Assembly: GCA_009782175.1 (NCBI GenBank) | Contig: WRKR01000022.1 | Span: forward strand, 1-44,757 | Direction of reading: 5' to 3' | Source: Cystobacterineae bacterium | GTDB taxonomy: Bacteria; Myxococcota; Myxococcia; Myxococcales; Myxococcaceae | Length of the DNA: 44,757 bases | Part shown: piece by piece, positions 28,494 to 44,452 of the stretch | Numbering within the stretch: the stretch's first letter is position 1 | How the letters are laid out: each line of letters starts with the position of its first letter | The notes under the pieces: generated by a model | The model's database searches: none | What the model was told of the DNA's origin: nothing | What the model saw: only the letters and a program-made list of their open reading frames with translations | Position numbers and translations under genes: made by a program

Positions 28494-28631
28494 CAAAAGT
28501 CCCTACACCGAAAGTGCCCGCATTCTGGCTTTTCTTACGAGCTTTCTTTGAAGTCAAACGAAAAGCCCACATGCGCATAAACATGCAGGCAGATGACAAC
28601 AACTTCTATCAGTGGCTTTCAAATTGAAAAC

Positions 28632-28668
28632 AAAAAAAGCGGCGCCCCACCAGGAATAGGGCGCCTTT
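28632..28668 (-). terminator. Terminator after Gly-rich twin B, upstream of sctV
   Basis: GGCGCCC (28641-28647) pairs with GGGCGCC (28659-28665), and T7 follows on the minus strand. It is homologous to the twin A terminator. Confidence 0.87.
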
Positions 28669-28691
28669 GGGATTTTGATGCTCTCTAAGGA

Positions 28692-29036
28692 CTATCTCAT
28701 GTTATTAATGACTGACATCGCTATCTCATTTTGCTTCTTCAGCATGTTAGTCATCATCGCGATAGTCTCTTGGGTGTCCTGCATCTGTGCCTGCATCATC
28801 ATGTTATCCATCCCCTTCGACATCATTTTATCGAGCATACCCTGAAAGTTTTGCGCAGATGGACCCGACATTTTTGATATACCACCACCACCACCACCAC
28901 CACCTCCTCCTCCACCGAACATGTCCACTATACCGCCCAACGTGCCCATGATGCCACTGCTGGAGCTCGAAGAGCCACCGCCCATTATCCCTGAAATCAT
29001 AGAGCCAACATTGCCAATTATACTTCCGATATCCAT
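28692..29036 (-). CDS. Gly/Met-rich small protein, twin B; candidate T3S substrate
   Basis: A 114-aa paralogue of twin A. The N-terminus MDIGSIIGNVGSMISGIMGG, a longer Gly run (GGGGGGGGGGGG) and an identical C-terminal helix except for one or two residues (QNFQGML versus QDFQGML, DTQET versus DIQET). It has the same AAAAGGAG leader. Differences concentrate in the Ser/Thr/Gly hinge, while the Met/Gln-rich helix is preserved, suggesting that the helix is the functional part. Role as for twin A: inferred exported or assembly component of the T3S system. Confidence 0.75.
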   Translation of the reverse strand: MDIGSIIGNVGSMISGIMGGGSSSSSSGIMGTLGGIVDMFGGGGGGGGGGGGISKMSGPSAQNFQGMLDKMMSKGMDNMMMQAQMQDTQETIAMMTNMLKKQNEIAMSVINNMR

Positions 29037-29562
29037 GGTGTTTCTCCTTTTAAATGGTGTGCAACTTTATCTCTAAAACGCATACAGACTATCTATGGTT
29101 GTCGAGAAAAACCTCTCACACAGTCGATCTTTATTTGTTGACAGAAAGAGAAATTTCTTTCTGTTAAATGACATATATATTGTCGACGGAGACAAACATT
29201 TGTTTCTCGAAAAACAAACAAAAAACATCTTTTTTTATTTGTGTCTTTGATTGCGCAAAACATTTCACACAGAAAGGGGTTTGCGAGAAAACCGTCAATA
29301 ATAACAATATATTAATATGGAACACAAAGAGTGTGTTTTGCGCAAAAATTCAAATACAGAACACAAACTAAACTGAGTGTTCGGGTTTAGACATAAAACA
29401 CAAACACTCTAAACCAGACTGAGTGTTTGTATGCTGCCACAAAAGACATACACTTTAAGCCGGTTTTATGTTGAAGTGAGTGTGGCGAGCACAGCACAAC
29501 GTTGGAGGCGAGCTAAAGCTTGTCTGCGCTCTGCTCCATTTCCTTCGTTCTGTGCGGGGGTG
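29037..29562. promoter_or_regulatory. AT-rich spacer with nested inverted repeats
   Basis: After the conserved leader (to about 29133) the DNA becomes strongly AT-rich, unlike the rest of the locus. Inverted repeats include TGCGCAAAAC at 29252-29261 with 29335-29344, and ACAAACACTC at 29400-29409 with 29421-29430. CTAAAC/GTTTAG pairs lie near 29368-29390. A GGCGAGCTAAAGCTTGTCTGCGCTC dispersed-repeat copy is at about 29504-29530. No gene. Likely control region for twin B. Confidence 0.6.
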
Positions 29563-30042
29563 TTATCGGGAGCTGCGAAGGAGTGAGAGCATGGCTTGAG
29601 CTTTTTTGTGCAGCTTGTCTTTGGGGGGCAAAAGCCGCATGGCAAGCAGCAAGTCTTCGGCTGCTTGTTTGCGTTGTCCCAAGGCCAGCCTCGCTTCTGC
29701 TCTGCCTATAAAAACCGAGGCGTCTTTGGGCGCCAGGCGCAGGGCAATATCAAAAGCGGCCAGGGCATCCTGCGCGTTGCCTGCGGCCAACTCAACCACG
29801 CCCAGGGCCTTGGCAAAATAAATGTCTGTGGGGCTAATGGCATAAAGCCCTTGGAATAAGGTGCGGGCTTCTCGAATTTTCCCCTGCATGAAAAACTGGT
29901 GGCCAAACCGTGCAATGCTATAAAGCTCCGCATCGGTATATCCGCGTACTTCTTTCAGGCTTGCTTTGCGGTCTATCCAACGTTGCAACATTTCCTGAGG
30001 CGAAGGGGAGGCGGCAGGAGAGGACACCGGGGGTTGTTTCAT
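29563..30042 (-). CDS. TPR protein, SycD/LcrH-like T3S chaperone candidate
   Basis: A 159-aa protein from the ATG at 30042 (AGGGGAAAG upstream); the frame is open to a TTG at 30085-30087. After a Pro/Ser-rich start, TPR units read LYSIARFGHQFFMQGKIREA, AKALGVVELAAGNAQDALAAF and VFIGRAEARLALGQRKQAAED. Order and spacing match SycD/LcrH class II chaperones. It is the last gene of the long operon and lies directly upstream of Gly-rich twin B, so it may serve that protein. The C-terminus is a short basic helix. Confidence 0.72.
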   Translation of the reverse strand: MKQPPVSSPAASPSPQEMLQRWIDRKASLKEVRGYTDAELYSIARFGHQFFMQGKIREARTLFQGLYAISPTDIYFAKALGVVELAAGNAQDALAAFDIALRLAPKDASVFIGRAEARLALGQRKQAAEDLLLAMRLLPPKDKLHKKAQAMLSLLRSSR

Positions 30043-30083
30043 GGCTTTCCCCTTTTCCACCAAACAGCCAAGCATGCAACCAT

Positions 30084-30566
30084 TCAATAGCCTTCTTTTC
30101 TTTGCTCCTCCTGGCGAAGTCGCTCAACTTCATCCAGGTTTTCACTTATTTCACCCACCAAGCGCAACATGTTTTCTTCATAGGCCAGCATGGACTTTAA
30201 ACGCTCCAGGCGATCTGCAGGCACATTCAAAACCATCAACTGTTTTTTGAGTTTGCCAAGCGACTCGGAAGTGCCGCGCTCCAAGGCCTGCGCCAACTCT
30301 TCACGCTCTGAAAAAGCATTTGAAGCGTCTTCTTTTCCACTCCAAGGCATGGGAGGGGATGGCAACCTCAGCTCTTCTGAAGAGCGGGCAGGGCCTATAA
30401 ACTCCAACAAAGCCGCAGAAGCCAGCGGGGCAGACTGGGCGTCACGCTTCCGGCTTGTCTGCCTGCTCTCCAACTGCGAGGAGCGAATCAGCTTCTCTTG
30501 AACATTTCTTGCCCCTCCCCATGACCACATGGGGGACTTTGGCGGTGGTGAATTTATATTCGACAT
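30084..30566 (-). CDS. Unknown T3S-locus protein (160 aa)
   Basis: I do not recognise this family. Residues 1-90 are Ser/Pro-rich and probably disordered (MSNINSPPPKSPMWSWGGAR start, no Sec signal). Residues about 90-160 form a charged coiled coil ending RLVGEISENLDEVERLRQEE. A disordered N-terminus plus a coiled coil is typical of T3S-exported or chaperone-bound proteins, and the gene sits between the FhlB-like gene and a TPR chaperone. It could be a substrate of that chaperone or a gatekeeper-like regulator; neither is shown. Confidence 0.6.
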   Translation of the reverse strand: MSNINSPPPKSPMWSWGGARNVQEKLIRSSQLESRQTSRKRDAQSAPLASAALLEFIGPARSSEELRLPSPPMPWSGKEDASNAFSEREELAQALERGTSESLGKLKKQLMVLNVPADRLERLKSMLAYEENMLRLVGEISENLDEVERLRQEEQRKEGY

Positions 30567-30594
30567 CTCTCATCCATGGTGGAGCCCCTTCAAC

Positions 30595-30876
30595 TCATTT
30601 TCTCTGCAAAGGCGCATTTTGTTGCGAAAGCGAATAAACAAAATTCAAAATTTCGGCCACAGCATCATAAAGGCTCTCCGGAATTTCTTGCCCAACTTCT
30701 ACGCGAAACAAAGCTTCTGCCAAACTCACATTGCGCAAGACAGGAATGTTATTTGCTTTCGCAATTTCTCGGATTTTATCAGCCCTCAGCTTCAACCCTT
30801 TGGCAATAACCCGCGGAGCACTGTCCTGCTCTTTGTCATATTTCAGCGCAATGGCAATTTCTGAGCCCTCATCCAT
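30595..30876 (-). CDS. Stand-alone SctU/FlhB C-terminal domain (FhlB/FlhX-like)
   Basis: A 93-aa protein aligned without gaps to the cytoplasmic C-terminal domain of SctU next door: ALKYDKEQDSAPRV is identical and ALFR-x-E-x-G-x-EIPE-x-LYDAVAE-x-LNFVY is shared. It begins right after the place of the SctU NPEH cleavage site and has no membrane segments and no Asn-Pro itself. Some flagellated bacteria carry such a fragment (FhlB/FlhX), which can replace the FlhB C-domain in substrate-specificity switching. Here it follows sctU by 43 nt and looks like a tandem duplication product. No Shine-Dalgarno is evident. Confidence 0.88.
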   Translation of the reverse strand: MDEGSEIAIALKYDKEQDSAPRVIAKGLKLRADKIREIAKANNIPVLRNVSLAEALFRVEVGQEIPESLYDAVAEILNFVYSLSQQNAPLQRK

Positions 30877-30919
30877 AAAAAGAAGCTAGCAAAAGCCACG
30901 CTCGCTTGCCAAGCCCCCA

Positions 30920-31975
30920 CTATTTGTTGTGGCTTAGGCCATAGACAAAATTCAAAACCTCAGCCACAGCATCATATAACTCTTCGGGAATTTCACTGCC
31001 TATCTCGATGCGAAACAAGGCATGCGCCAAGGGCACATTCCTCAATATGGCCACATCATGCCGACGCGCCAGCTCCTTTATGCTTTGTGCACGGCTGTCC
31101 AAGCCTTTGCAAAGCACACGCGGAGCACTGTCTTGCTCTTTGTCATATTTCAGGGCAACCGCCACATGCTCCGGATTGGTCACCACAAAGTCCGCATCCG
31201 CCACCGCCGCCATTTGGGCCCCCTCCATAATTTCATGATGCATTTGCTTTCGCTTGGCCTTGCTATGTGGATCTCCCTCAGACTCCTTATATTCACGCTT
31301 GACTTCCTGCATGCTCATCATCATCTTCTTGCGATAACTATAGTGTTGAAACCACACATCAAAAATCGCAAAAGCCAAATAGGCCAAGCTGACTTGCACC
31401 ACCAGCCTAAAAATCAACTCCCCCATCAGCGCCATGGTGACATTGGCTTCTTGAGTTACGGTCAGCGTAATGAATTTCAGCGCATCCTGAATCACCAGAT
31501 AAACCACAAAACCCGTAACACCCATCTTCACCAATGACTTGGGCAACTCCATGAGTTTTTGTTGAGAAAACAGATTTTTAAGGCCACTTAAAGGGTTGAG
31601 TTTGTCCAGCTTGGGCATCAATACTTTGGGGCTAAACAAAGCACCTACCAACAAAAAATCCGTCAAACTCCCCACCACCGCGCAGGAGATAACCACCGGC
31701 AAGGAAAGCAACAACACATTCCATATGCCCATGTTGAGCGCATCGCGTATGGCTTGAGAGATGTTTTCAGGCTGAGCAATGGCATCAAAAGTAAACAAAA
31801 ACATCATGTTAATGCGATCTTCCCAAAAGGGCCACATGCTTTTTAATACGCCCATGGCCACCACAAAACCCAAGACACTCTTTAAGTCCTGGCTCTTCCA
31901 AACATTGCCATCTTTGCGCGCATCCCGAATTTTTTTGGACGTGGGTTGTTCTGTTTTTTCTCCGCCTTCAGCCAT
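30920..31975 (-). CDS. sctU: T3S export switch protein SctU (FlhB/YscU family)
   Basis: 351 aa from the ATG at 31975 (AAAGGAG 7 nt upstream). The EKTEQPTSKK-like N-terminus, typical of the family, is followed by four membrane helices (about 32-210). A linker with KREYKESEGDPHSKAKRK and the autocleavage region NPEH (267-270) come next; most relatives have NPTH, so Thr is replaced by Glu while Asn-Pro is kept. The C-domain ends in FVYGLSHNK. SctU closes the export gate and switches substrate class after self-cleavage. It is downstream of sctT with a 16-nt gap. Confidence 0.96.
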   Translation of the reverse strand: MAEGGEKTEQPTSKKIRDARKDGNVWKSQDLKSVLGFVVAMGVLKSMWPFWEDRINMMFLFTFDAIAQPENISQAIRDALNMGIWNVLLLSLPVVISCAVVGSLTDFLLVGALFSPKVLMPKLDKLNPLSGLKNLFSQQKLMELPKSLVKMGVTGFVVYLVIQDALKFITLTVTQEANVTMALMGELIFRLVVQVSLAYLAFAIFDVWFQHYSYRKKMMMSMQEVKREYKESEGDPHSKAKRKQMHHEIMEGAQMAAVADADFVVTNPEHVAVALKYDKEQDSAPRVLCKGLDSRAQSIKELARRHDVAILRNVPLAHALFRIEIGSEIPEELYDAVAEVLNFVYGLSHNK

Positions 31976-31991
31976 CTTAAGCTCCTTTCCT

Positions 31992-32822
31992 TCAACCCAG
32001 AAGGCCGATGGCGCGACCAAAGCGCAGAAACATGACGTTGTATTCCTGGCTGAGGCGCCCCACCATCAGGTGCAGCGAAACAATAACCATCAACGCCGTC
32101 ACAGCAGGCTTTATTTGCATGGCCATGAAAAACACTTGTATTTGGGGAGCCGCGCGGTTGATGACGCCCAGCGCCGCTTCTGTGAGGAAAATAGCGAGCA
32201 ATATGGGTGAGGCCAAAATCAACCCAATGCGAAACAAATCGCCAAATACCCGCAGGACAACCTCAATAAACGGCCACATCCCCAGAGAAAAACGGGGAAA
32301 CTCATTCAAAGGTACCTTCAAAAAACTATCGGCCAAAGCTTCAATAACCCAATGGTGTCCATTCAGCGTTAAAAACAACACCACCACCAGTTGAAGCTTC
32401 AATGAAGAATAGAGGGTTACTCTGTGCTGTATTTGGGGCACAAACATTTGTGCCTGGGTGGAGCCTGAAAAAATGTCCATAAATGCCCCGGCTGCCCCAG
32501 CAAATTTAAAAACCAAATCCACAATAAACGCCAAAGAAAAACCAATAAAAACCTCTTTGAGCAACAAGGCCAAATAGGGAACCACCTCAATGGGAATTTG
32601 CGCCATCTGCTCGCTTAACGCAGGAAACAACAAAGCACCCAATATCACCCCCAAACCCATGCGCGCTTGCGCCGGAATGCTTTCTCCTCCAAGAAAAGGC
32701 GTAAAAATAACCACCGGCAACAATCGCGCCAGAATGAGCGCCATTGAAAAAACGGCCAGACTCAAGTCAACTCTAATTCCAAACTCGTTGCGCGCCTGAG
32801 TCAGAATTTCATCCAAATTCAT
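31992..32822 (-). CDS. sctT: T3S export gate protein SctT (FliR family)
   Basis: 276 aa, six or so membrane helices (for example MALILARLLPVVIFTPFLGG and FIGFSLAFIVDLVFKFAG). With SctR and SctS it builds the helical inner-membrane export channel. FliR-family features include the GxxIPAQARMGLG loop and a C-terminal LMVGRLSQE segment. The ATG overlaps the sctS stop by 4 nt (ATGA). Confidence 0.95.
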   Translation of the reverse strand: MNLDEILTQARNEFGIRVDLSLAVFSMALILARLLPVVIFTPFLGGESIPAQARMGLGVILGALLFPALSEQMAQIPIEVVPYLALLLKEVFIGFSLAFIVDLVFKFAGAAGAFMDIFSGSTQAQMFVPQIQHRVTLYSSLKLQLVVVLFLTLNGHHWVIEALADSFLKVPLNEFPRFSLGMWPFIEVVLRVFGDLFRIGLILASPILLAIFLTEAALGVINRAAPQIQVFFMAMQIKPAVTALMVIVSLHLMVGRLSQEYNVMFLRFGRAIGLLG

Positions 32823-33085
32823 GGAGCAACCATGTTGGGGAACTGATCGAAAATCCTAAAAGTAAACCTCAACAGCTGTGTCCCTATCCACCCACCGGCA
32901 ACGCCAAGCGTTCCAAATACGGCTATCAGCTTGGGAGCAAAGGAAAGCGTCTGCTCCTGAATTTGCGTGGTCGCTTGCACAACAGAAATGGTGACACCCA
33001 CAACCAAACTCATGAGCACAGGTAAAGCGGCTGTCAACAACACGAGATATAAGGCTTGCTGCGTTAAAAAAGTCAGTTGATGCAT
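32819..33085 (-). CDS. sctS: T3S export gate protein SctS (FliQ family)
   Basis: 88 aa with two membrane helices separated by the conserved polar loop (VQATTQIQEQTLSFAPKL), diagnostic of FliQ/SctS. Four copies wrap around SctR5-SctT in the export gate of known systems. It lies 15 nt after sctR and overlaps sctT. Confidence 0.96.
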   Translation of the reverse strand: MHQLTFLTQQALYLVLLTAALPVLMSLVVGVTISVVQATTQIQEQTLSFAPKLIAVFGTLGVAGGWIGTQLLRFTFRIFDQFPNMVAP

Positions 33086-33100
33086 GGCAATGCGACTCCG

Positions 33101-33895
33101 TCAGAGATAACCAGAAACCAAACCCTTGGCGATAAGATACCAGCCATCCACCAACACAAAAATGAGCAACTTAAATGGCATGGATATGGTTGTCGGCGAC
33201 AACATATGCATGCCCAAAGCAAGCAAAATGTTGGCCACCAACATGTCGATGACAATGAAAGGAATAAACAACAAAAACCCAATTTGGAAAGCCTGCTTGA
33301 GCTCTGAAACCACAAATGCGGGCGTCAATATGAGAAAATCATCCGGCCCAATGTCATCTCTGTCTGCCGGCGCCCTCATCTTGCGCGCAAGGCTATAAAA
33401 AAGCGTCTTGTCTTTGGCTGAAACTCGCTTTTTTAAAAAAGTCCGCAAAGGCTCTTTCGCTTTCTGGGCAGCCTCCATCAGCTGCCCTGCGGACTTCGCA
33501 GAAAGCAGCCCCTCGCTGTTCTGAATGTCGGCAGGGTTCGCCTCGCGGTACATCTCCTGGAGTGTCGGTGACATGATGTAGACCGTCAAAATAATCGCCA
33601 ACCCCGTAATCACTTGCGTAGGCGGAATTTGCTGCGTGCCCAGGGCTGAACGCACAATGGACAAAACCACTGAAATTTTGACAAAGCTGGTCACCATCAG
33701 CAGCACAAAAGGGGCAAGCCCCATCGCTGCCAAAACCAACAACAATACCATGGGCCGGCTGGCATAGGAGTCCGGCGTTAGTGTGTCTACGGACAAAGAC
33801 TGAGGGCCGCCACGCCTCTGCGCCAAAACCCACATGGGAAATATGGACGCTATCAACAACCCAATTCTAAAAAAACGCGCATTCCAAGTCCTCAC
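33101..33895 (-). CDS. sctR: T3S export gate protein SctR (FliP family)
   Basis: 264 aa beginning with GTG (33895) that overlaps the FliO-like stop (GTGA). An N-terminal cleavable-type signal (FFRIGLLIASIFPMWVLAQ) resembles flagellar FliP, which is often made with one; injectisome SctR usually lacks it. FliP-family signatures VLLMVTSFVKISVVLSIVR, LGTQQIPPTQV and FIPFIVIDMLVANILLALGM are intact. Core pore subunit of the export gate. Confidence 0.95.
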   Translation of the reverse strand: MRTWNARFFRIGLLIASIFPMWVLAQRRGGPQSLSVDTLTPDSYASRPMVLLLVLAAMGLAPFVLLMVTSFVKISVVLSIVRSALGTQQIPPTQVITGLAIILTVYIMSPTLQEMYREANPADIQNSEGLLSAKSAGQLMEAAQKAKEPLRTFLKKRVSAKDKTLFYSLARKMRAPADRDDIGPDDFLILTPAFVVSELKQAFQIGFLLFIPFIVIDMLVANILLALGMHMLSPTTISMPFKLLIFVLVDGWYLIAKGLVSGYL

Positions 33896-34677
33896 GACTC
33901 TCCCTCGCTAAATGGCTCTTTGCTTGTCTTTCGCTCCAAGAGCTTCTTCAGAAACAAACTGGGCTCACCAGACGGCTTGTTTTTGTTGCTGCTGAGCACC
34001 TGCTCCACCTCTTCTGTGTTCAGTTTTGATAAGACAGTCAAAACCCTCTCCCCGTTGGACAACAAAAAATAGTCGTTGGCAACTTTGACAAGCAATAAAC
34101 CTTTTCTCGCATCAACAGAAACCCGCTCTATAATGGAAATGACGCGCTGACCTCTGCCATCCCTCAATTTTAACAAACGCTTCCCACCCCAATTCAACAA
34201 AATATAAGCCAGGAGTACAACTCCCGCGAGCACCAGCAACGTTTGCAGCAACATCCACCCCAGCCCCGGCTCATATGGAGAAAGCTCAGCACCCAGCGAA
34301 GAAAGCTCAGTGTCAGCAGGAGGAAGCTTGGCGTCAACGGGAGAAAGCTCAGTGTCAGCAGGAGGAAGCTTGGCACCAACGGGAGAAAGCTCAGTGTCAG
34401 CGGGAGGAAGCTTGGCGCCAACGGGAGAAAGCTCAGCGTCAGCGGGAGGAAGCTTGGTGCCAACGGGAGAAAGCTCAGTGTCAGCGGGAGAAAGCTTGGC
34501 GTCAACGGGAGAAAGCTCAGTGTCAGCAGGAGGAAGCTTGGCGCCAACGGGAGAAAGCTCAGTGTCAGCGGGAGGAAGCTTGGCGCCAGCGGGAGAAAGT
34601 TTGGCGTTTGGCTCTGGAAGGGCTTCTGGGCTTAAGGCTTCTGCGCTGGCAAGCGCAATAACGAGCAGGGACAGCAT
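33892..34677 (-). CDS. FliO-like export-gate assembly protein with periplasmic 14-residue repeats
   Basis: 261 aa from the ATG at 34677 (AGGAG 5 nt upstream). A TTG at 34713 would add a basic n-region and a more usual signal peptide. After the signal, residues 27-124 are seven tandem copies of LSPVGAKLPPADTE plus a partial eighth. One membrane helix follows (MLLQTLLVLAGVVLLAYILL, about 139-158), then a cytoplasmic domain with RVISIIERVSVDARKGLLLVK, as in FliO. FliO helps assemble FliP rings in flagella; injectisomes normally have no counterpart. Its place directly before sctR is the flagellar order O-P-Q-R. Confidence 0.85.
   Translation of the reverse strand: MLSLLVIALASAEALSPEALPEPNAKLSPAGAKLPPADTELSPVGAKLPPADTELSPVDAKLSPADTELSPVGTKLPPADAELSPVGAKLPPADTELSPVGAKLPPADTELSPVDAKLPPADTELSSLGAELSPYEPGLGWMLLQTLLVLAGVVLLAYILLNWGGKRLLKLRDGRGQRVISIIERVSVDARKGLLLVKVANDYFLLSNGERVLTVLSKLNTEEVEQVLSSNKNKPSGEPSLFLKKLLERKTSKEPFSEGES
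34306..34599. repeat. Seven tandem 42-bp units inside the FliO-like gene
   Basis: Each 42-bp unit encodes LSPVGAKLPPADTE with few changes (G/D, P/S, T/A). Because 42 is a multiple of three, all other frames remain open across it. Low divergence between units indicates recent expansion or gene conversion; copy number may vary between strains. Confidence 0.95.
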
Positions 34678-34693
34678 GCTTGCTCCTGCAAAT

Positions 34694-34945
34694 TTATGAG
34701 CCTTCAACGGCAATCAGCCTTATGCCCAATTGTCCGTCGAACTCGACCAGTTCACCTTGTCCAACTGTCTTTCCATTGACAACCAAGTTCAATGGATCTG
34801 AGGCAAGTCGACCTAGATCGATCACATGCCCTACTTTCATTTCAACAACCTCTTCTATGGTCACTGGAATGCGTGCAAGCTCGACAACAAGCCTCAAAGG
34901 CACATCGCTCAACAGTGGTGCAGCACTCAGTTGGTTTGGGTCCAT
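34694..34945 (-). CDS. Internal translation product SctQ-C (SpoA2 domain)
   Basis: The internal in-frame ATG (34943-34945, MDPNQLSAAPLLSD) is preceded at 5 nt by AAAAGGGG. The 83-aa product is exactly the C-terminal SpoA domain. In several known T3S systems, such a short form is made by internal initiation and is needed with full-length SctQ. The call here rests on position and ribosome-binding site only. Confidence 0.55.
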   Translation of the reverse strand: MDPNQLSAAPLLSDVPLRLVVELARIPVTIEEVVEMKVGHVIDLGRLASDPLNLVVNGKTVGQGELVEFDGQLGIRLIAVEGS

Positions 34946-37023: not shown

Positions 37024-37520
37024 GTTTTTCCCCCTCTCCTTCTTTGTAAGTGCAAGGCGTTGCCAATCTCCTCTTGCACAAGCTCTTCTCGCATTTGCCG
37101 TTCATAACGCACTTGTTTAGCCCATTGCTCTTTGTGTTTCTCAATGGCTTTCTTCTCTTTGGCCGCCTCTGCCATTTCCGACCTTTTTTGCTCCATCCAC
37201 TGCTCCGCTCGCTTCACATTTCCTTCTTGCGCCCCTATCTCCAGCTCCAGCTTCGCCTCCTCATCCTTCAGCCTTTGCTCAAAACGCTCAAATTGCTCAA
37301 ATGCGTTGGCCTGAAGCGCTTGCGCGGATAAGACGGATTGCATATGAGCAAGCACCTTCTCTTTGCGTTCCTGTTGCCGCCTTGTCAAATGGGAACGCAT
37401 CTCTTCTAAAATTTTTTTCTGCTTGTGCAAAGCCTGCATCGCCTCAGAAAAAACCTGCTTTGCAGCTTCCTCCGCTCGTTCCCGCATTTCTAGCAAAGTT
37501 TGCAGTCGATAAGCTGGCAT
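37020..37520 (-). CDS. sctO: T3S ATPase stalk protein SctO (FliJ/YscO family)
   Basis: 166 aa, almost entirely one long antiparallel coiled coil (LQTLLEMRERAEEAAKQVFS start, basic tail). FliJ/SctO sits in the central pore of the SctN hexamer, like the gamma subunit of F1, and links it to SctV. Size, coiled coil and position right after sctN are diagnostic. Confidence 0.88.
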   Translation of the reverse strand: MPAYRLQTLLEMRERAEEAAKQVFSEAMQALHKQKKILEEMRSHLTRRQQERKEKVLAHMQSVLSAQALQANAFEQFERFEQRLKDEEAKLELEIGAQEGNVKRAEQWMEQKRSEMAEAAKEKKAIEKHKEQWAKQVRYERQMREELVQEEIGNALHLQRRRGGKT

Positions 37521-37535: not shown

Positions 37536-38852
37536 TCACGCTTCAAATAAAGCAACGAGTGCTGCTGCTGTGTCTTCAAAACTGACACTGCTGTCCGTGG
37601 ACTGTTTCAAAAAACCGATGATAGCGTCATATTTGTCAATGGCATAGTCCGTTCGTGGATCTGTCCCATATTGATAGGCGCCAAGCAAAATCAAATCCCT
37701 TTGTTTTTCATAGGTTGCAAGGGCTTCCCGAAGTTTTCCTGCGGCAACTTTGTGCTTTTTGTCGACCACTTGATTCATGACGCGGGACAAGGAAGCCAAA
37801 ACATCCATGGCCGGCCATTGGTTGCGCTCTGCGAGGGTGCGGTTTAAAATGAAGTGTCCGTCCAGAATACCGCGTACTTCGTCGGCAATGGGCTCTTCCA
37901 TGTCGCCACCGGCAACCAAAACCGTATAAATGGCCGTGCATTTGCCTTTCTCAGAATTCCCGGTCCTCTCGAGGATTTTGGGGAGCATGGAAAACACAGA
38001 GGGAGGATATCCCTGGCGTGCAGGGGGCTCTCCTATGGCCAAACCAATTTCACGCTGTGCTCTTGCAAGGCGCGTCACGGTATCCAGCATGAACAAGACG
38101 TTGCCCCCACGCTCTCGAAAATATTCTGCAATGGAGGTAGCCACAAAAGCAGCACGCAAACGCACCAAAGAAGGTTGGTCTGAGGTTGCGCAAACCACAA
38201 TAGAACGCTTAAGCCCCTCTCCCAGCGCATCTTCCACAAACTCCAAAACCTCGCGACCGCGCTCGCCAATCAGTGCAATAACGGCCAACTCGGCAGCCGT
38301 GTTGCGCGCAATCTGCCCCATCAACGTAGACTTGCCAACACCAGAGCCTGCAAAAAGCCCTATACGTTGTCCTTCGCCCACCGTCAGCAACCCATCAATG
38401 CAACGCACCCCCAAAGGCAATGGCCTCAAAATACGTTGGCGCTTGTATGGATCTGGACACTCCCGGTCCACGGACCATTCTATCAACCCCTCTTTAGGCA
38501 AAGGACGACCATCAATGGGCTCTCCCAAACCATTGAGTACGCGACCCAACAAGGCATCTCCTACGCGAATGTTCAAAGGGCGACCTGTGGAAAGCACTTC
38601 ACTGTCTGGGCCTATGCCTTGCAGTTCTCCCAGAGGCATCATCATTACCTCATCCCCTTGAAAACCCACCACCTCCGCTTTGACAGCTGCACGGTTGCGC
38701 CCTTTTATAAAACACAACTCACCCACACGCACGTTGGGCACAGCCGCCTTAATCACCAAACCTGTCAGCTCTGTGACACGCCCACGCACGCCGACCAATT
38801 GCGCATTCCTGAGCAAGTTTTGATAGCGCCCCCAGGGAATTGCAAGGTCCAT
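37536..38852 (-). CDS. sctN: T3S ATPase SctN (FliI/YscN family)
   Basis: 438 aa from the ATG at 38852; a TTG two codons earlier overlaps the sctL stop. The N-terminal beta-barrel (about 1-90) is followed by the RecA-type core with Walker A GSGVGKST (169-176), the VLFMLDTVTRLARAQREIG Walker B region, and the GEPPARQGYPPSVFSMLP signature that separates T3S ATPases from F1-beta. The hexamer unfolds substrates and releases chaperones. Catalytic motifs are complete. Confidence 0.97.
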   Translation of the reverse strand: MDLAIPWGRYQNLLRNAQLVGVRGRVTELTGLVIKAAVPNVRVGELCFIKGRNRAAVKAEVVGFQGDEVMMMPLGELQGIGPDSEVLSTGRPLNIRVGDALLGRVLNGLGEPIDGRPLPKEGLIEWSVDRECPDPYKRQRILRPLPLGVRCIDGLLTVGEGQRIGLFAGSGVGKSTLMGQIARNTAAELAVIALIGERGREVLEFVEDALGEGLKRSIVVCATSDQPSLVRLRAAFVATSIAEYFRERGGNVLFMLDTVTRLARAQREIGLAIGEPPARQGYPPSVFSMLPKILERTGNSEKGKCTAIYTVLVAGGDMEEPIADEVRGILDGHFILNRTLAERNQWPAMDVLASLSRVMNQVVDKKHKVAAGKLREALATYEKQRDLILLGAYQYGTDPRTDYAIDKYDAIIGFLKQSTDSSVSFEDTAAALVALFEA

Positions 38853-38854
38853 TC

Positions 38855-39556
38855 TCAATCCGCCTTCCCCAAAGCATCCTCTTCAAACAGAATACGCAGT
38901 GCTCTAAACTGAGTTTCCAGTTGAGCGTCAATGGTCCCAAACTCGGTTTGCACAATGCAACCTCCGGGCTGCACCTCCAGATCGTCCCGAATGGCAATGT
39001 CAACACTGCGCCCAATCAGCTCTATAAGCTCAGGCCGCCTCTCTCGAAGCAATTTGGCATCCCGCGGGTGAACGCGCAAAAGCATGGCCTTGGCTGTTCG
39101 CAAATTCTCAATGGCGTTTGCACAAATTTCCAAAAGCAGCTGCGGCTCCCTCTCCAAATCCCTGCCAATCATTTTTTCGGCAATCTGGCAGGCCAACTCA
39201 ATAAGCTCCTTTTTGGCCTCTGCCAACATACTGCCTGCTTGCATCTTCGCCTTGGCCAACTCCGTGGCGGCCTGAGCTGCAGCTTCTTCCAACGCTTCCT
39301 CACGTGTTTCTTGAAAAACAAGTGCGCGCTGGCGCTCAGCATCCTCTAACAACTCTCGGGCTTTTTGTTCAGCCTCTTCGATGATGCCTTTGGCTTTCGA
39401 GCGTGCATCCACCTCTTCGGGACGCACAACAATGCCACGTATGGGGGGGGAACGCATGGCTGCCGCAGGTTTAAGGGGTGATGGATCGCTGGACAAACCC
39501 CCAGGAATAATTTTTCCTGAGCTTCTGAGTGGCCCCTTGTTGTCAATATCTGCCAT
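38855..39556 (-). CDS. sctL: T3S ATPase regulator SctL (FliH/YscL family)
   Basis: 233 aa. N-terminal about 45 residues are disordered. A long Ala/Glu/Lys-rich helix (about 50-125: ARSKAKGIIEEAEQKARELL and on) leads into the FliH C-domain (about 130-230, with LACQIAEKMIGRDLEREPQL and VQPGGCIVQTEFGTIDAQLE). The latter, DxxLxPGGCxIET-like, is a hallmark of the family. SctL dimers link SctN to SctQ. GGAG lies 8 nt before the ATG. Confidence 0.94.
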   Translation of the reverse strand: MADIDNKGPLRSSGKIIPGGLSSDPSPLKPAAAMRSPPIRGIVVRPEEVDARSKAKGIIEEAEQKARELLEDAERQRALVFQETREEALEEAAAQAATELAKAKMQAGSMLAEAKKELIELACQIAEKMIGRDLEREPQLLLEICANAIENLRTAKAMLLRVHPRDAKLLRERRPELIELIGRSVDIAIRDDLEVQPGGCIVQTEFGTIDAQLETQFRALRILFEEDALGKAD

Positions 39557-39585: not shown

Positions 39586-41310
39586 CTACCCCTTGCGAGT
39601 GGGTTTCTCTCCAATATTCCTTTGACCATGAGTTGCCTGCGCTGTCCTCTCATTCCCTTGCCTTAAGGCTCCTGCTCCCCCTGGCATAGGCCTGCGAGGA
39701 GCAGACTGTGGTGAGGGCATGCGAATGCCCGCTGCCTTGCCCGTGGGCATATTTGGGGTCGAAGGCGACACCGGACGCCTTGCTTCTGTTATTTCAGGCG
39801 AGGGTGATGGGCGCCTTGTTTCTGCTGCCTTAGGCAGGGGCAACGGGCGCTTGGCTTCTGTTATTTCATACGAGGGTGACGGACGCCTTGCTCCTGCTGT
39901 TTTAGGCGGGGGCGACGGACGCCTTGCTTCTGTTATTTCAGGCGGGGGCGACGGACGCCTTGCTTCTGTTATTTCAGGCGGGGGTGACGGACGCCTTGCT
40001 TCTGTTGTTTTAGGCGGGGGCAACGGGCGCTTGGCTTCTGTTATTTCAGGCGAGGGTGATGGACGCCTCACATGTGCCGTTTTGGGCGGCTGCGCTGCCG
40101 AGCGCTCTATGGTGTGTGGTTTTGGCAGTCGATGGCTGCGGTTTGCAGCTGGAGAAGCCATGGGGAGGTTTCCCCTCTCTCCACCAGGGCCTACAAGCCT
40201 TGAGGGTGTAGGCTTCGGAAGCTTTTCAGCTGGCACGCGAGAGGGTTTCATGGCTGGCGGCGCTGCCAAACGCGCAGAGCCCACACTTGGAACAGAACCC
40301 AGGGGAGCAGGTTTCGCTCGAGCAGCTGCCTTAGGAGGTGGAGTGACAGGGATTATTTTGGGTTTGGACAAAACGAGTGGGCGCTCAACAAAGCCCCGCT
40401 TCGCCAAAAATTCAAGCTGATCCAAAATGTCAGCTCTTCCACCATCTCCCTGGACTTTCTTGCCTTTTTCTTCATCCAACCAATGAGAGAGCAGCTTGCC
40501 CAATTCCCCTTCATGCCGCCGTGCCATTTTAGAAGCAAAATCGGCGGATTCTGACAGACAAGCCCTCATAATGCGCCGTACACCTGCGCTTCGAAGCGCC
40601 GAGGAGGAATTTGCCGTTCCACCATATAACTCTAACAATCTACGCGAGTCATTGGCCTGCAGTGGACGCATTTGGCCAGCTGCATCACAAGCTTTTTGAG
40701 CCAATATCCTCTGGTCCGGAGGAAGTGAATCAAAAAAACTCTGCCGTTCGCCACTGGGCAACCCCGCCAATGCTGTTGCAAACACACGAGCGCCCATTCT
40801 GTCACAAACCGTAATAAGCTCTCTGGCCTGCAAACCCAAAATGTCTTCAAACCTAAAGAGGGCGCTGATGGAAGCGTTTTGAAGTTCTTCTTCAAGTTTC
40901 CAGCGCACAAAGGAAAACACTTCAGGGCTGGGTTCTCTGCGCAGTTGTGTTTTTTTAGAGCTGGGAAGTGCAGCTTGAACGGAATTCGCCAGCAAGGAAG
41001 GCAAAGCGCGCAAAACCACTTCAGCAACAACGGGCTTCTCTTTTGCCAACAATCCAGCCAGGTGTTCCGGTTCTGCTGTCGCAAGCCTCCGGCGTCGCAT
41101 GCTGAGCAGGCGACGCATTTCACGTACCAAGAAAGGTATCCTCTGCTCCTTGGGGATGGAGCGAAAAGCTTCAGTGCGGTGCTTTAAAAGCTCTGCGTCT
41201 TCTTCAGGCAAAAACTGAAACGCTTCATCGGCTCCCGCTCCACCAAAAACGACCGATGCCAAAAGCAACATGGTTTGTCGTTTGGAAAGTGAAGCAAAAT
41301 AGTGTTCCAC
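39586..41310 (-). CDS. FliG-like protein in the sctK/fliG position, with Pro-rich repeat tail
   Basis: 574 aa, GTG start. Residues 1-70 resemble FliG_N (LSKRQTMLLLASVV ... FQFLPEEDAELL). Residues 80-145 resemble FliG_M (EKPVVAEVVLRALPS in place of EHPQ..., SPEVFSFVRWKLEEEL). Residues 152-230 align without gaps to the FliG_C motor domain (FEDILGL ... ALAGLPSGERQSFFDSLP). The ARM-C segment between M and C appears missing, and the Asp-Asp of the torque helix is Gln-Ala (161-162). After about residue 310 the protein is Pro/Ala/Arg rich, with nine 12-residue repeats (410-517). In known injectisomes this slot holds SctK. Family assignment is from remembered consensus patterns. Confidence 0.78.
   Translation of the reverse strand: MEHYFASLSKRQTMLLLASVVFGGAGADEAFQFLPEEDAELLKHRTEAFRSIPKEQRIPFLVREMRRLLSMRRRRLATAEPEHLAGLLAKEKPVVAEVVLRALPSLLANSVQAALPSSKKTQLRREPSPEVFSFVRWKLEEELQNASISALFRFEDILGLQARELITVCDRMGARVFATALAGLPSGERQSFFDSLPPDQRILAQKACDAAGQMRPLQANDSRRLLELYGGTANSSSALRSAGVRRIMRACLSESADFASKMARRHEGELGKLLSHWLDEEKGKKVQGDGGRADILDQLEFLAKRGFVERPLVLSKPKIIPVTPPPKAAARAKPAPLGSVPSVGSARLAAPPAMKPSRVPAEKLPKPTPSRLVGPGGERGNLPMASPAANRSHRLPKPHTIERSAAQPPKTAHVRRPSPSPEITEAKRPLPPPKTTEARRPSPPPEITEARRPSPPPEITEARRPSPPPKTAGARRPSPSYEITEAKRPLPLPKAAETRRPSPSPEITEARRPVSPSTPNMPTGKAAGIRMPSPQSAPRRPMPGGAGALRQGNERTAQATHGQRNIGEKPTRKG
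39760..40083. repeat. Nine tandem 36-bp units in the FliG-like gene
   Basis: Units encode (E/K)(I/T)TEARRPSPPP with alternation between EITEA-type and KTTEA-type copies. The run is in-frame and close to identical between some units, indicating recent expansion. The encoded segment is basic and Pro-rich, hence extended. Confidence 0.93.
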
Positions 41311-41352: not shown

Positions 41353-42126
41353 CTATCCTGTCCTCTTTGCAGCACGGCTCTTTAGGAAAATCCATATGGA
41401 GACGCCGGCCACCAGCAAAATTAAAAAACCAGCTCCGCCTACCACCACCAGACGAAATTGGTCCGCGCTGGATTTGGTCATTTGGAAACCAAACACTGTC
41501 TGCAGGCGATCTTTTAGATCTAACTCAGCCTGGGGAGGCGCCGCAAGCACCATGAGGACTTGAACCGCTTCAGGCGCCAACTGTGGCACTGCGGCTGCCA
41601 CAAAACGCCGTATGGAAGGCTCATCCATGGGAGGCTTTTCTTCTTCTCTGGACGTGCGATATTTAATAAACACCGACGCTGAAGGCCTGGGCCTCTCCGC
41701 GTCAGGCACCAGATCGTTAGACTCGGGCAGCATGACCAAAGTCCTCACCTCTAAAATTCCAGGGACTCGGTTGAGCGCATTCGAAATTTCCCCTCCCAAA
41801 GCCTCAAGCAGCATGGCCCGCTCCTCCGTCTGTGTTGGAATCATCCCCTTATTCTTTTTAAACAGGGAAAGCCCGTCCGCACGAACCCGAGGCAAAGAGT
41901 TGTCCGTCAGCAACTGCACAGCGTTGACGGCATCGGCTTTAGGAACGCTGATAATATAGGTAGCTTCGTCAGCTTCAACGCGCTGTTTAGACGCCTGAAT
42001 GCTGTTGCGTTGCAGCAACACATAAATTTCGTTGGCTTCTTCTTCGGATAGATCATGCTGCAAATTCTCAACACAAGCGACCAAACCAATGCCCAACAAG
42101 GCAACAAACCCATATTTTCGGAACAT
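41353..42126 (-). CDS. sctJ: T3S inner-membrane ring lipoprotein SctJ (YscJ/FliF family)
   Basis: 257 aa from the ATG at 42126; the longer open frame to 42204 lies in the terminator region. MFRKYGFVALLGIGLVAC is a lipoprotein signal with lipobox LVAC (Cys about residue 18). The periplasmic RBM domains follow (YVLLQRNSIQASKQ..., LEGELSRALN-like LLEALGGEISNALNRVPGIL, then SVFIKYRT). One C-terminal membrane helix ends the protein (VVGGAGFLILLVAGVSIWIF, about 226-247). Lipid anchoring and shortness mark the injectisome type (SctJ), not flagellar FliF, which is larger and not lipidated. No Shine-Dalgarno is evident. Confidence 0.95.
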   Translation of the reverse strand: MFRKYGFVALLGIGLVACVENLQHDLSEEEANEIYVLLQRNSIQASKQRVEADEATYIISVPKADAVNAVQLLTDNSLPRVRADGLSLFKKNKGMIPTQTEERAMLLEALGGEISNALNRVPGILEVRTLVMLPESNDLVPDAERPRPSASVFIKYRTSREEEKPPMDEPSIRRFVAAAVPQLAPEAVQVLMVLAAPPQAELDLKDRLQTVFGFQMTKSSADQFRLVVVGGAGFLILLVAGVSIWIFLKSRAAKRTG

Positions 42127-42184
42127 AAGCTTTGCGAGACTACACGAAGCTTCCAAAAAAAGCGGCCCAAAAGAAGCAACTTTT

Positions 42185-42215
42185 AAAAAAAAAGCGGCCC
42201 CCAAGTGCCGCTTTT
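42185..42215 (-). terminator. Intrinsic terminator between sctI and sctJ
   Basis: AAAGCGGC (42191-42198) pairs with GCCGCTTT (42207-42214) around an 8-nt loop, and the minus strand continues with a run of nine T. It lies inside the operon, after sctI and before sctJ, so it could lower expression of downstream genes relative to the rod protein. Confidence 0.85.
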
Positions 42216-42287
42216 CGAAAAAAAGAACTGTTTCTTTGAAAAATGAGACTTAAGTCTGCAAACCGTCTCTGTTGTTTTTTTGAAAAA

Positions 42288-42851
42288 TCAGACTTGGGTT
42301 TTCAAGGTATCCTTGAGGCCTGAAGTCGTTTTTTCAACAATTTTGCTCGTCAAGTCCATTTCCTGGCTATATTTGTACATGCTGGCCTGGAGGCTGAGCA
42401 GCTCCGCGTTGGAAAACTTCTTTCCTTGCAATGCAGAGCCGATGAGCTTGTCCAAAGAGGCTTGCCCTTTTTCTACGCCATCCATTAAATTTGCAAGGCT
42501 TCGGGTGCTTTTTGAAGAGGGCTGCTGCGTTTGCGTTGCGCTTTCTGCCTTGCGCGGTTTTGAAGTCTCGCTCAAGGCCTGAGTTCTTATCTTATTCATG
42601 CGAGATCTATCGGTTTTTTCAACCTGCCCCGCATCCCGCACAACATCCGCTTTGTTCACCGATTCGCTGGCTTGGACTTGAGAAACCGACTGGTTTTGGC
42701 GAATATGGCCAGCCTTGTTTTCTGCCTGCGTGTTGAGTGCTTCATCAAATTTGCTTGGGCCCTGTTTGGCCTGTTGGACTGCTTGCTCTGGAAGCTTTTG
42801 CTGTGCTGCCTGTGCTTGAGCTGCTGCAATCCCTGCGAGTGGTCCCGCCAT
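42288..42851 (-). CDS. sctI: T3S inner rod protein SctI (YscI family)
   Basis: 187 aa. The first about 140 residues are Ala/Gln/Lys rich and disordered, without Sec signal, as for T3S-exported proteins. The last about 45 match the SctI/YscI rod pattern: FSNAELLSLQASMYKYSQEM then DLTSKIVEKTTSGLKDTLKTQ. AAGGAGAG lies 7 nt before the ATG. Its beginning overlaps the sigma-factor gene by 107 nt in another frame. The position equals that of fliE in flagellar operons. At 187 aa it is longer than typical SctI (about 90-120). Confidence 0.88.
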   Translation of the reverse strand: MAGPLAGIAAAQAQAAQQKLPEQAVQQAKQGPSKFDEALNTQAENKAGHIRQNQSVSQVQASESVNKADVVRDAGQVEKTDRSRMNKIRTQALSETSKPRKAESATQTQQPSSKSTRSLANLMDGVEKGQASLDKLIGSALQGKKFSNAELLSLQASMYKYSQEMDLTSKIVEKTTSGLKDTLKTQV

Positions 42852-43569
42852 TGTCTTCTCTCCTTTTTAAAGTCATCTCTCCTGATTGTCGCTCATCCTC
42901 AACTAAAAGTTGCTTCAATTTTTCAATGGCGCGCGCATGTAGCCGAGAAGCCCAGCTTTTTGACTGCCCAATTGCTGCTCCCGCCTCCTCTAAAGTCTTC
43001 GACTGAAAATAATAGGCCTGGAGCAACCGACGCTCTTTCTCTGACAGCATTCCCATGGCTTTTCGAATGCGCCTTTTGGTTTGCTCAAGCTCTAAATGCT
43101 CTTCGGCAGACAGTCGCTCGCTGGCAATCTGTAGGCTTTCTGCCGCATCTAAACTGGCCGCATAGACAATGGCCAAGCCCGAAACAGCATTCGAAATTTC
43201 ACCCACATCTTCTGCAAAAGAGCTCTGCGAAAGAGCGTCTCTGTCCGAAAGGTTGCTTAAATAGGCATTGGAGCGCTCAGCACCGAGGAGGTTGGGCTCT
43301 GAGCTGCTGTTGCTGCCCAAAATGCCCATCTTCCTTAGCCCGTCAAAAATGGCTCCCTTCACTCGATAATGGGCAAAGGTTAAAAAATTGGCACCCATGC
43401 TTGGATCAAAACGCTCTGCTGCCTCCAACAAGCCCATATGCCCATAGGCCATCAACTCATCCAAATCCATATGAGAATGAAATTGTCGGCATATACCCGC
43501 AGCGATGGACCTCACATAGGGCCCATATTTTTCCAGGAGCTGATTTTTGTTCTCCCCAAACTTTTCCAA
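42745..43569 (-). CDS. FliA/WhiG-like sigma factor (sigma-28 type)
   Basis: About 274 aa; the TTG at 43569 has AGGAG 6 nt upstream, while another TTG at 43596 overlaps the preceding gene. Region 2 (DLDELMAYGHMGLLEAAERF then FLTFAHYRVKGAIFDGLRKM) and region 4 (LSEKERRLLQAYYFQSKTLEEAG..IGQSKSWASRLHARA) fit the FliA/WhiG group; region 3 (about 95-150) is diverged. The last about 45 residues are Ser/Thr/Gly-rich and overlap sctI by 107 nt; they are not part of the usual fold. It likely directs transcription of the T3S locus, as FliA does for late flagellar genes. Confidence 0.9.
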   Translation of the reverse strand: MEKFGENKNQLLEKYGPYVRSIAAGICRQFHSHMDLDELMAYGHMGLLEAAERFDPSMGANFLTFAHYRVKGAIFDGLRKMGILGSNSSSEPNLLGAERSNAYLSNLSDRDALSQSSFAEDVGEISNAVSGLAIVYAASLDAAESLQIASERLSAEEHLELEQTKRRIRKAMGMLSEKERRLLQAYYFQSKTLEEAGAAIGQSKSWASRLHARAIEKLKQLLVEDERQSGEMTLKRREDNGGTTRRDCSSSSTGSTAKASRASSPTGQTGPKQI

Positions 43570-43577
43570 AGCGACTC

Positions 43578-43967
43578 CTATTCCGCCTTCGCCCAAATTT
43601 TTTCAAGCGTTTCCTGAAGTCGAGGATCTCCTTCAATATCCTCTGCTATCTTATTTGTGAGTGTCTTTGAGTTTGTACGAACAATTTCACGAAGAATGTT
43701 GGCAACCAAACGCCGCGTTGCTTCTTCTTTCGTCTTAATGGCACCCTCTCGAAACTGCCGGACAATTTCAGCCGCCTGAGCAATAACAGGATCGCTCACG
43801 CTCACAATGGCTCCTACATCTCCCAACCTCACCGCGGGCGCAATAGGCTCAATCCCCGCCCTAAATGCAGCGCCTGTCGCTTTTGGAGCCACACCCGTTC
43901 CTCGGGCCATACCCGCCCCTCGAGCTGCACCGGCTCCTTTCTTGCCGCCTATCTTGCCAACAGACAT
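43578..43967 (-). CDS. Unknown protein next to the sigma factor (129 aa)
   Basis: I do not recognise this family. Residues 1-45 are Gly/Ala/Arg rich and basic (MSVGKIGGKKGAGAARGAGM). Residues 55-129 are helical (SVSDPVIAQAAEIVRQFREG ... RRLVANILREIVRTNSKTLT). GGGGAG lies 8 nt before the ATG. It lies directly upstream of the sigma gene, separated by 8 nt from the preferred TTG. FlgM-type anti-sigma factors often neighbour FliA, and the helical C-terminal part is about the right size, but similarity to FlgM is too weak to claim. It could equally be a secreted substrate. Confidence 0.6.
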   Translation of the reverse strand: MSVGKIGGKKGAGAARGAGMARGTGVAPKATGAAFRAGIEPIAPAVRLGDVGAIVSVSDPVIAQAAEIVRQFREGAIKTKEEATRRLVANILREIVRTNSKTLTNKIAEDIEGDPRLQETLEKIWAKAE

Positions 43968-44005
43968 GGGGACTCCCCGTGCAATTCAAAACCCAATGCC
44001 CAAAC

Positions 44006-44452
44006 TTAAGGCGCTTTGGGCTTCGCTTTAGAAAACAAACCCTTCTCCCTGCAATCCAACAGTGAATCCGCAAACATTGCAGCATCACTGTCAGGTTCCA
44101 TCACCTTCGCCTGCTGCAATTCCTTCAATGCGGCAACATCCTTGCCCATAAACAACAAGGCCTCCCCCGCATGCGCATGCGGCAAAGCAGACCTCGGAGC
44201 CAAACGCTGCGCCGCCCTAAATGCCTGCAACGCTTTCTCATACTTCCCTTGAACCAAATCCAACGTGCCTAAGGCAATCTGCGGAACTTCACTTTTGGGC
44301 ATCAACATGCAAGCCCCCATAAACACTTCATGGGCCTCTGCAAAACGACCCATGTCCATCCACAAATAACCCGTCTCTAAAAGAATTTTTGCCTGAATTT
44401 TTGTCGTGGGAACCAGACTGCCTAAAATTCCTGAGGAAGCTTCTGTTGTCAT
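44006..44452 (-). CDS. TPR protein at head of T3S operon (SycD/SctG-like)
   Basis: 148 aa, three TPR units: AKILLETGYLWMDMGRFAEA, PQIALGTLDLVQGKYEKALQ and PHAHAGEALLFMGKDVAALK. This matches the small TPR chaperones of T3S systems (LcrH/SycD, or YscG that guards the needle subunit). It is the first recognisable gene of the minus-strand operon. No Shine-Dalgarno is evident. Which substrate it serves is unknown. Confidence 0.75.
   Translation of the reverse strand: MTTEASSGILGSLVPTTKIQAKILLETGYLWMDMGRFAEAHEVFMGACMLMPKSEVPQIALGTLDLVQGKYEKALQAFRAAQRLAPRSALPHAHAGEALLFMGKDVAALKELQQAKVMEPDSDAAMFADSLLDCREKGLFSKAKPKAP

What the first reader, a model, noticed from the sequence alone, without database searches (positions are those of the whole stretch)
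28494..44452. Type III secretion locus in flagellar gene order, with injectisome parts but no secretin
Seen: order sctI-J-(FliG)-L-N-O-P-Q-(FliO)-R-S-T-U-(FhlB)-V corresponds to fliE-F-G-H-I-J-K-M/N-O-P-Q-R-flhB-flhX-flhA, with a FliA-like sigma at the head. Yet SctJ is a lipoprotein and SctQ is the two-SpoA form. No flagellin, hook, rod, stator, SctC or SctD gene is in the window. Known: secretin-less non-flagellar T3S systems of Myxococcales have been placed near the flagellum/injectisome split. Inference: this is a transitional or reduced T3S machine, possibly working without an outer-membrane secretin.
Basis: partly seen in the sequence, partly recalled or inferred. Interest (0 to 1): 0.88.

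Follow-up and report, generated by a model that had tools for sequence, protein, structure and literature searches.

The report
Myxobacterial predation T3SS with needle-like genes
The locus is the known secretin-less type III secretion system of predatory myxobacteria, here kept as the only one in a small-genome relative from termite guts, and although this system is described as "needleless" its gene cluster carries several genes related to the injectisome needle.

Summary
The type III secretion (T3S) locus is real and complete as described. It runs on the minus strand, 44452 to 23858; sctV itself is 26373-28496. The genome (2.70 Mb, 99.95% complete) has one FHIPEP gene. It has no flagellin, rod, MotB or SctC; its three secretins are PilQ, GspD and a Tad/Kil type.

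SctV lies inside the vertically inherited secretin-less "Myxo" non-flagellar T3SS of Myxococcaceae (100/100). That system corresponds to T3SS* of Myxococcus xanthus (MXAN_2434-2464), which lyses prey together with the Kil Tad pilus. So the system is known and is not a new transitional machine. The window belongs to a genome-reduced genus whose nearest relatives are termite-gut MAGs.

New: the locus is not needle-free. Two small genes (28692-29036, 24588-24938), and a third at the operon head on the adjoining contig, belong to a family found in the same slot in 39 of 41 relatives. Each sits beside or near a TPR gene of the SycD type. A profile of the family finds T3SS needle proteins as its 12 best hits in the PDB. 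Two relatives' copies pass Pfam's needle cut-off. A true FliG homologue, reported absent, is also present. That these proteins form a needle is inferred.

The parts
44006..44452 (-). TPRa: TPR chaperone-like protein next to the operon-head needle-like gene, which lies on adjoining contig G000:C42:124-726
   Evidence: TPR_2 1.6e-11; LcrH_SycD 49 bits, CdsG 24.8 bits, both below cut-off; contig overlap
43578..43967 (-). X1: conserved protein of unknown function
   Evidence: no Pfam match; same place in many Myxococcaceae loci
42745..43596 (-). FliA/WhiG-type sigma factor
   Evidence: TIGR02479 3e-33
42288..42851 (-). SctI inner rod protein
   Evidence: PF17001 8e-4; NF038054 0.005
41353..42126 (-). 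SctJ lipoprotein (ORF extends to 42204; likely start ATG 42126)
   Evidence: PF01514 2.9e-21; TIGR02544 1.6e-36; sequence
39586..41310 (-). FliG homologue (FliG middle and C domains) with a Pro-rich repeat tail
   Evidence: FliG_C 1.2e-7; family profile vs PDB: FliG best, 2.9e-6; model pLDDT 82.5, best folds all FliG
38855..39556 (-). SctL/FliH stator
   Evidence: PF02108 5.7e-22
37536..38858 (-). SctN ATPase
   Evidence: TIGR02546 625 bits, cut-off 604.75
37020..37520 (-). SctO stalk
   Evidence: PF16789 1.7e-29
36004..37023 (-). SctP/FliK-like ruler
   Evidence: HpaP 1.1e-4, Flg_hook 1.2e-4, both below cut-off
34694..36007 (-). SctQ C-ring/sorting platform protein
   Evidence: FliMN_C 1.3e-20, FliM 1.7e-8; TIGR02551 98.5 bits vs cut-off 100.8
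33892..34713 (-). FliO-like protein with a 42-bp tandem repeat
   Evidence: PF04347 5e-9; repeat
33101..33895 (-). SctR
   Evidence: TIGR01102 233.9 bits, cut-off 208.6
32819..33085 (-). SctS
   Evidence: PF01313 2.2e-25
31992..32822 (-). SctT
   Evidence: PF01311 3.2e-51
30920..32020 (-). SctU
   Evidence: TIGR01404 373 bits, cut-off 358
30595..30876 (-). FhlB: free-standing FlhB/SctU cytoplasmic C-domain
   Evidence: PF01312 6.5e-28, profile 260-335
30084..30566 (-). X2: conserved unknown (WPWGG motif in relatives)
   Evidence: no Pfam match; conserved between fhlB and TPRb
29563..30087 (-). TPRb: SycD/LcrH-type T3S chaperone
   Evidence: TIGR02552 95.4 bits (cut-off 104.8), SctY 7e-11
28692..29036 (-). 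NDL1: needle (SctF)-like subunit, Gly-rich N-terminal part, needle-like C-terminal helix
   Evidence: family profile; own-genome search 5e-18; PDB profile hits
26373..28496 (-). SctV export gate
   Evidence: FHIPEP 2.7e-225; TIGR01399 742 bits, cut-off 692; tree
25309..26325 (-). Sel1-repeat protein inserted between sctV and NDL2
   Evidence: PF08238 1.7e-52; 108-bp repeats
24588..24938 (-). NDL2: needle-like paralogue, part of a duplicated block of about 520 bp
   Evidence: own-genome search 7.7e-18; duplication 24514-25038 / 28617-29136
23858..24421 (-). TPRc: SycD-type TPR chaperone next to NDL2
   Evidence: TIGR02552 51.6 bits, below cut-off

Best explanation
This is the orthologue of the Myxococcaceae predation T3SS (the Myxo 'long' NF-T3SS, called T3SS* in M. 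xanthus), kept as the sole T3S machine in a genome-reduced genus related to termite-gut MAGs. Shown: a full export apparatus and sorting platform (SctJ, FliG-like, SctQ, SctL, SctN, SctO, SctRSTUV), no secretin of its own, no flagellar rod, filament or stator, and three small genes homologous to T3SS needle subunits, each beside or near a TPR protein of the SycD class. Inferred working: the TPR proteins hold the needle-like subunits in the cytosol; the SctN/SctV machine exports them; they polymerise on the SctI/SctJ base into a short needle or filament. Having no SctC, this filament ends in the periplasm or passes the outer membrane through the partner Tad/Kil secretin at the contact site, and delivers lytic effectors to prey in the gut.
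For: SctV tree: window inside Myxococcaceae group A, 100/100; A + B + injectisomes split from flagella, 100/100. Gene order conserved across Myxococcaceae. Needle-like family: at least one member in the TPRb-TPRc-sctV slot in 39 of 41 loci. Profile against 177,635 PDB sequences: the 12 best hits are all T3SS needle entries (7y6c_F 2.9e-6, PrgI 0.005, MxiH 0.008); with untouched sequences only, 7y6c_F 1.3e-4. Pfam PF09392 run over 60 genomes: G025 copies at 33.0 bits and the G037 copy at 33.5 exceed the 29.4 cut-off; 16 of 29 hits with E<0.1 lie within 25 kb of an FHIPEP gene. Own genome: exactly three significant family hits, all in this locus. TPR proteins match SycD/SctY/CdsG. Short Myxo locus: needle-like gene directly before sctI-sctJ. 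Relatives' ORFs have GC3 0.88-0.97 and GGAG-type ribosome sites. Tad/Kil-type secretin with FHA-TadA ATPase and A24 peptidase present. T3SS* acts with Kil in M. xanthus (PMC12075869).
Against: NDL1 and NDL2 do not match PF09392 on their own. Homology rests on about 55 residues of a Met/Gln-rich helix. With the 16 untouched short sequences only 7y6c_F stays significant and PrgI falls to E 0.9. The AlphaFold model of NDL1 is poor (pLDDT 52). The family's N-terminal part is variable, and some members lie outside T3S loci (G003:C459, G002:C21), so some may be other substrates. M. xanthus copies lie on the strand opposite to the operon. Two of 41 loci lack a recognisable copy. No data on polymerisation; use of the Kil secretin and the prey role here are inferred from M. 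xanthus.
Confidence: 0.72

Rival explanations
1. The small proteins are T3S substrates (effectors, tip/translocator-like or rod-like proteins) that share a C-terminal helix for export or docking but do not build a needle; the machine remains needleless and its cargo is handed to Kil tips, as proposed for T3SS*.
For: Variable Gly/Ser-rich N-terminal parts; several copies and members outside the locus; SctI also weakly matches the needle model; published model of tips replacing the needle (PMC12075869).
Against: Shortest forms are 71-75 aa, the whole size of a needle subunit; PDB profile hits are needles, not rod proteins; needle-sctI-sctJ order in the short locus; constant pairing with SycD/CdsG-type TPR proteins.
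Confidence: 0.3
2. One reading: a transitional or reduced T3S machine near the flagellum/injectisome split, working without any outer-membrane channel.
For: Flagellar-like order, FliO, FliG, FhlB and FliA-like sigma present; no SctC; Myxo group placed at the base of NF-T3SS in PMC3459982.
Against: In this tree the order among Myxo long, Myxo short and injectisomes is unresolved; the locus is vertically inherited within Myxococcaceae, so nothing transitional happened in this lineage; needle-like genes are present.
Confidence: 0.2
3. A degenerate relic in a shrinking genome.
For: 2.7 Mb genome in a family of mostly 4-13 Mb genomes; long branch of the genus; the FHA 'SctD' gene lies on another contig.
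Against: All core genes intact and clear of stops; kept in all three genomes of the genus; SctR 88-89% identical between them; the Tad/Kil-type partner is kept.
Confidence: 0.04

Closest known systems
Myxo NF-T3SS, long locus (Abby & Rocha 2012, PMC3459982) = T3SS* of Myxococcus xanthus, MXAN_2434-2464 (PMC10433427, PMC12075869)
   Same: Gene set, gene order, no secretin, SctV clade, several LcrH-type TPR proteins, co-occurrence with a Tad/Kil system
   Different: Here the only T3SS, in a 2.7 Mb genome; FHA 'SctD' gene on another contig; sctV stands before TPRc and NDL2; needle-like genes and FliG homologue recognised here, reported absent before
Classical injectisome (PrgI/MxiH type needle, SctC secretin)
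   Same: SctJ, N, Q, R, S, T, U, V, SctI and needle-like subunits; needle-sctI-sctJ order in the short Myxo locus as in prgI-prgJ-prgK (the latter from general knowledge)
   Different: No SctC, no canonical SctD, no recognised tip or translocon; FliG, FliO and FhlB present
Bacterial flagellum
   Same: Gene order, FliG, FliO, FliH, FliK-like and FliA-like sigma
   Different: No rod, flagellin or MotB; SctJ lipoprotein instead of FliF; SctV outside the FlhA clade
T3SS needle family SctF (PF09392)
   Same: Size of short members, C-terminal helix, chaperone pairing, place in operon
   Different: Long low-complexity N-terminal extensions in many members; window members below the Pfam cut-off

Membership tests
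Myxo NF-T3SS long locus / T3SS* | SctV within the Myxo NF-T3SS clade | tested here: met
   100/100
Myxo NF-T3SS long locus / T3SS* | conserved gene order sctI-J-L-N-O-P-Q-R-S-T-U-V with TPR proteins | tested here: met
Myxo NF-T3SS long locus / T3SS* | no secretin in locus or dedicated SctC in genome | tested here: met
   PilQ, GspD and Tad/Kil type only; SctC scores 142, 111, 52 vs cut-off 238
Myxo NF-T3SS long locus / T3SS* | large inner-ring protein SctD in the locus | tested here: not met
   Relatives have a double-FHA protein next to sctV; its orthologue here is at G000:C5:84685-85677. Presence in the genome, not place, is kept.
Myxo NF-T3SS long locus / T3SS* | absence of needle subunit SctF (as published) | tested here: not met
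   needle-like genes found here and in the known members alike; the published description, not the membership, is questioned
SctF needle (PF09392) | match above Pfam gathering score | tested here: inconclusive
   Met for homologues in G025 (33.0) and G037 (33.5), cut-off 29.4; not met for NDL1 and NDL2
SctF needle (PF09392) | family profile finds solved needle proteins | tested here: met
   12 best hits; 7y6c_F 1.3e-4 only
SctF needle (PF09392) | helix-turn-helix subunit fold | tested here: inconclusive
   model has helices 62-71 and 76-113 but pLDDT 52
SctF needle (PF09392) | T3S-exported and polymerises into a needle | not testable with these tools
   needs experiment
Classical injectisome | SctC secretin | tested here: not met
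Classical injectisome | SctD with periplasmic domain | tested here: not met
   no TIGR02500 match above cut-off in any of 60 genomes
Classical injectisome | translocon and tip proteins | not tested
   no search run
Flagellum | rod/hook, flagellin, stator | tested here: not met
   PF00460, PF00669, PF13677: none in G000; controls positive
Flagellum | FlhA-clade export gate | tested here: not met
FliG family | FliG middle and C-terminal domains | tested here: met
   PF01706 over cut-off; profile vs PDB 2.9e-6, residues 86-213; Foldseek best hits all FliG but E 8e-3 and low TM

The most novel reading that the evidence does not exclude
The 'needleless' predation T3SS of myxobacteria is not needleless. 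It builds a needle or filament from a diversified family of SctF homologues, made in several copies with their own TPR chaperones, and lacking SctC it threads this filament through, or docks it on, the Tad/Kil secretin: a hybrid Tad-T3SS injection machine with a FliG-type C-ring.
Probability: 0.33. Interest if true: 0.86.

Novelty: new member of a known kind. Interest (0 to 1): 0.62.

Why it matters
T3SS* is one of two machines by which Myxococcus lyses prey, and current models start from the belief that it has no needle (PMC12075869, 2025). The same belief underlies the scheme in which the Myxo system lost an ancestral SctF (PMC3459982). Needle homologues in nearly every such locus, directly before sctI-sctJ in the short variant, and a FliG homologue make both claims testable with a few gene deletions. 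Retention of the machine as the only T3SS in a genome-reduced lineage related to termite-gut MAGs suggests that contact-dependent lysis matters there.

Tried and rejected
Flagellum elsewhere in the genome: rejected. Dedicated secretin elsewhere: rejected. SctD by TIGR02500: only FHA-domain background. Foldseek for NDL1: not run, the model was too poor. My first needle alignment A1 carried one extra typed M in row 1; the search was repeated with untouched sequences (A3), with a weaker but still significant top hit. Syn/nonsyn counts for rows of unequal length are out of register and not used. The 332-aa plus-strand ORF at 42672 and other antisense ORFs were treated as chance. Literature searches found no report of a needle in the Myxo systems; papers outside the open library (e.g. 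Thiery 2022) could not be read.
Full report
What is there. The window is contig C22 of a 2.70-Mb genome, 65 contigs, 99.95% complete. A minus-strand T3S operon runs from the contig end to 23858. SctN, SctR, SctU and SctV exceed the injectisome equivalog cut-offs and score better on those than on the flagellar models. sctV lies at 26373-28496, just outside the stated interval. The window end overlaps the start of contig C42 by about 125 bp with one mismatch, so the operon head continues there.

Identity. One FHIPEP gene exists in the genome; family members have up to four. The closest SctR proteins (88-89%) are from MAGs Co191P4bin16 and Emb289P3bin65; these codes denote Cornitermes and Embiratermes termite gut samples (PMC7024585). 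The next are Myxococcus, Corallococcus and Archangium (65-75%). Gene order is the same across these Myxococcaceae. In the SctV tree the window sits in a Myxococcaceae clade (100/100). This clade, the second (short) Myxo locus and rhizobial/Mycetohabitans injectisomes form one group against flagella (100/100); their mutual order is open. This is the Myxo NF-T3SS of Abby & Rocha 2012 and, by synteny, T3SS* (MXAN_2434-2464) of M. xanthus, needed for prey lysis with the Kil Tad pilus. That group A is the long locus and group B the short one is my reading of gene content and of B's presence in small-genome families of the order.

Absences tested genome-wide. No rod protein, flagellin or MotB; the controls ring. 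Three secretins exist. By family score they are PilQ (447 bits) and GspD (593), and by context a Tad/Kil-type one with an FHA-TadA ATPase, an FHA protein and an A24 peptidase. None approaches the SctC cut-off. No canonical SctD exists in any of 60 relatives. The Myxococcus "SctD" is a double-FHA protein with one C-terminal membrane span and no periplasmic domain (sequence). Its orthologue here lies on contig C5 (45% identity, 5e-66).

Needle-like genes. Between TPRb and sctV, and beside TPRc, lie two near-identical genes (114 and 116 aa) from a duplicated block of about 520 bp. Relatives have one to five, occasionally six, small ORFs in the same slot, 71-75 aa in many Myxococcus, Corallococcus and Archangium loci and longer with low-complexity N-terminal parts elsewhere. 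One profile links them: 39 of 41 loci that reach from sctU to sctV have at least one (a few loci are the same organism fetched twice). Against the PDB, the profile's 12 best hits are T3SS needle entries only. The top one, 7y6c_F, is a 43-residue chain in a needle co-chaperone entry; I take it to be the needle fragment. With untouched sequences it stays significant (1.3e-4) while PrgI drops to 0.9. Independently, Pfam's needle model run on 60 genomes gives hits above its cut-off in G025, where both copies lie in the TPRb-TPRc slot, and in G037, between TPRc and TPRb. Of 29 hits at E<0.1, 16 lie within 25 kb of an FHIPEP gene, where about 2% would be expected by chance (rough estimate); one of the 16 is the window's own SctI. 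In the window's genome the family profile finds three copies and nothing else significant: the two in the window and one on C42 at the operon head before TPRa. The ORFs in high-GC relatives have GC3 of 0.88-0.97 and purine-rich ribosome sites. The TPR proteins match T3S chaperones SycD, SctY and, for TPRa, CdsG (all below cut-off). In the short Myxo locus the needle-like gene stands immediately before sctI-sctJ.

FliG. The protein at 39586-41310, reported absent from Myxo systems, is a FliG homologue: FliG_C over cut-off, family profile best matches FliG crystal structures, model of good confidence whose best fold matches are all FliG, though with low TM-scores, probably from domain flexibility. 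More distant Myxococcota loci carry FliG with both middle and C domains over cut-off.

Interpretation. What I add is that the published label needleless is probably wrong at gene level. That the proteins polymerise, and how they pass the outer membrane, is inferred; the Tad/Kil secretin is the obvious candidate because Kil recruits T3SS* in M. xanthus (PMC12075869).

Limits. The needle homology rests on about 55 residues; the NDL1 model is poor; members outside T3S loci suggest some are substrates. Tree sampling of injectisomes is thin because pathogen virulence plasmids were not fetched.

Noticed in passing
L103, L104, L107 (Deltaproteobacteria/bacterium MAGs): A more flagellar-like non-flagellar T3S locus: sigma, sctI, FliG with middle and C domains, L, N, O, P, split SctQ (two genes), FliO, R, S, T, and TPR genes each beside a large coiled-coil protein; candidate deeper branch of NF-T3SS.
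   Followed up: partly
G003:C459:2509-4333 (L169), L165:6563-6976 (G002:C21), G003:C8: Needle-like C-terminal domains on proteins encoded outside T3S loci, sometimes two in a row; possible orphan substrates.
   Followed up: partly
window 34300-34599 and 39772-40068: 42-bp (7 copies, 94% alike) and 36-bp (8 copies) in-frame tandem repeats in the FliO-like and FliG-like genes.
   Followed up: no
window 25309-26325: Sel1-repeat protein with 108-bp repeats inserted between sctV and NDL2; not at this place in the relatives examined.
   Followed up: no
window 30920-32020: SctU carries NPEH (VTNPEHVAVALKY) in place of the usual NPTH autocleavage motif.
   Followed up: no
L106:15149-17813 (Archangium lansinium): Six near-identical tandem copies of the 73-aa needle-like gene in one T3S locus.
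   Followed up: partly
window 6076-9117 and 1255-4314: Two large minus-strand proteins (1013 and 1019 aa): the first with Cys-rich and DxDxDG-type calcium-binding-like repeats, the second with an N-terminal export signal; by eye only.
   Followed up: no
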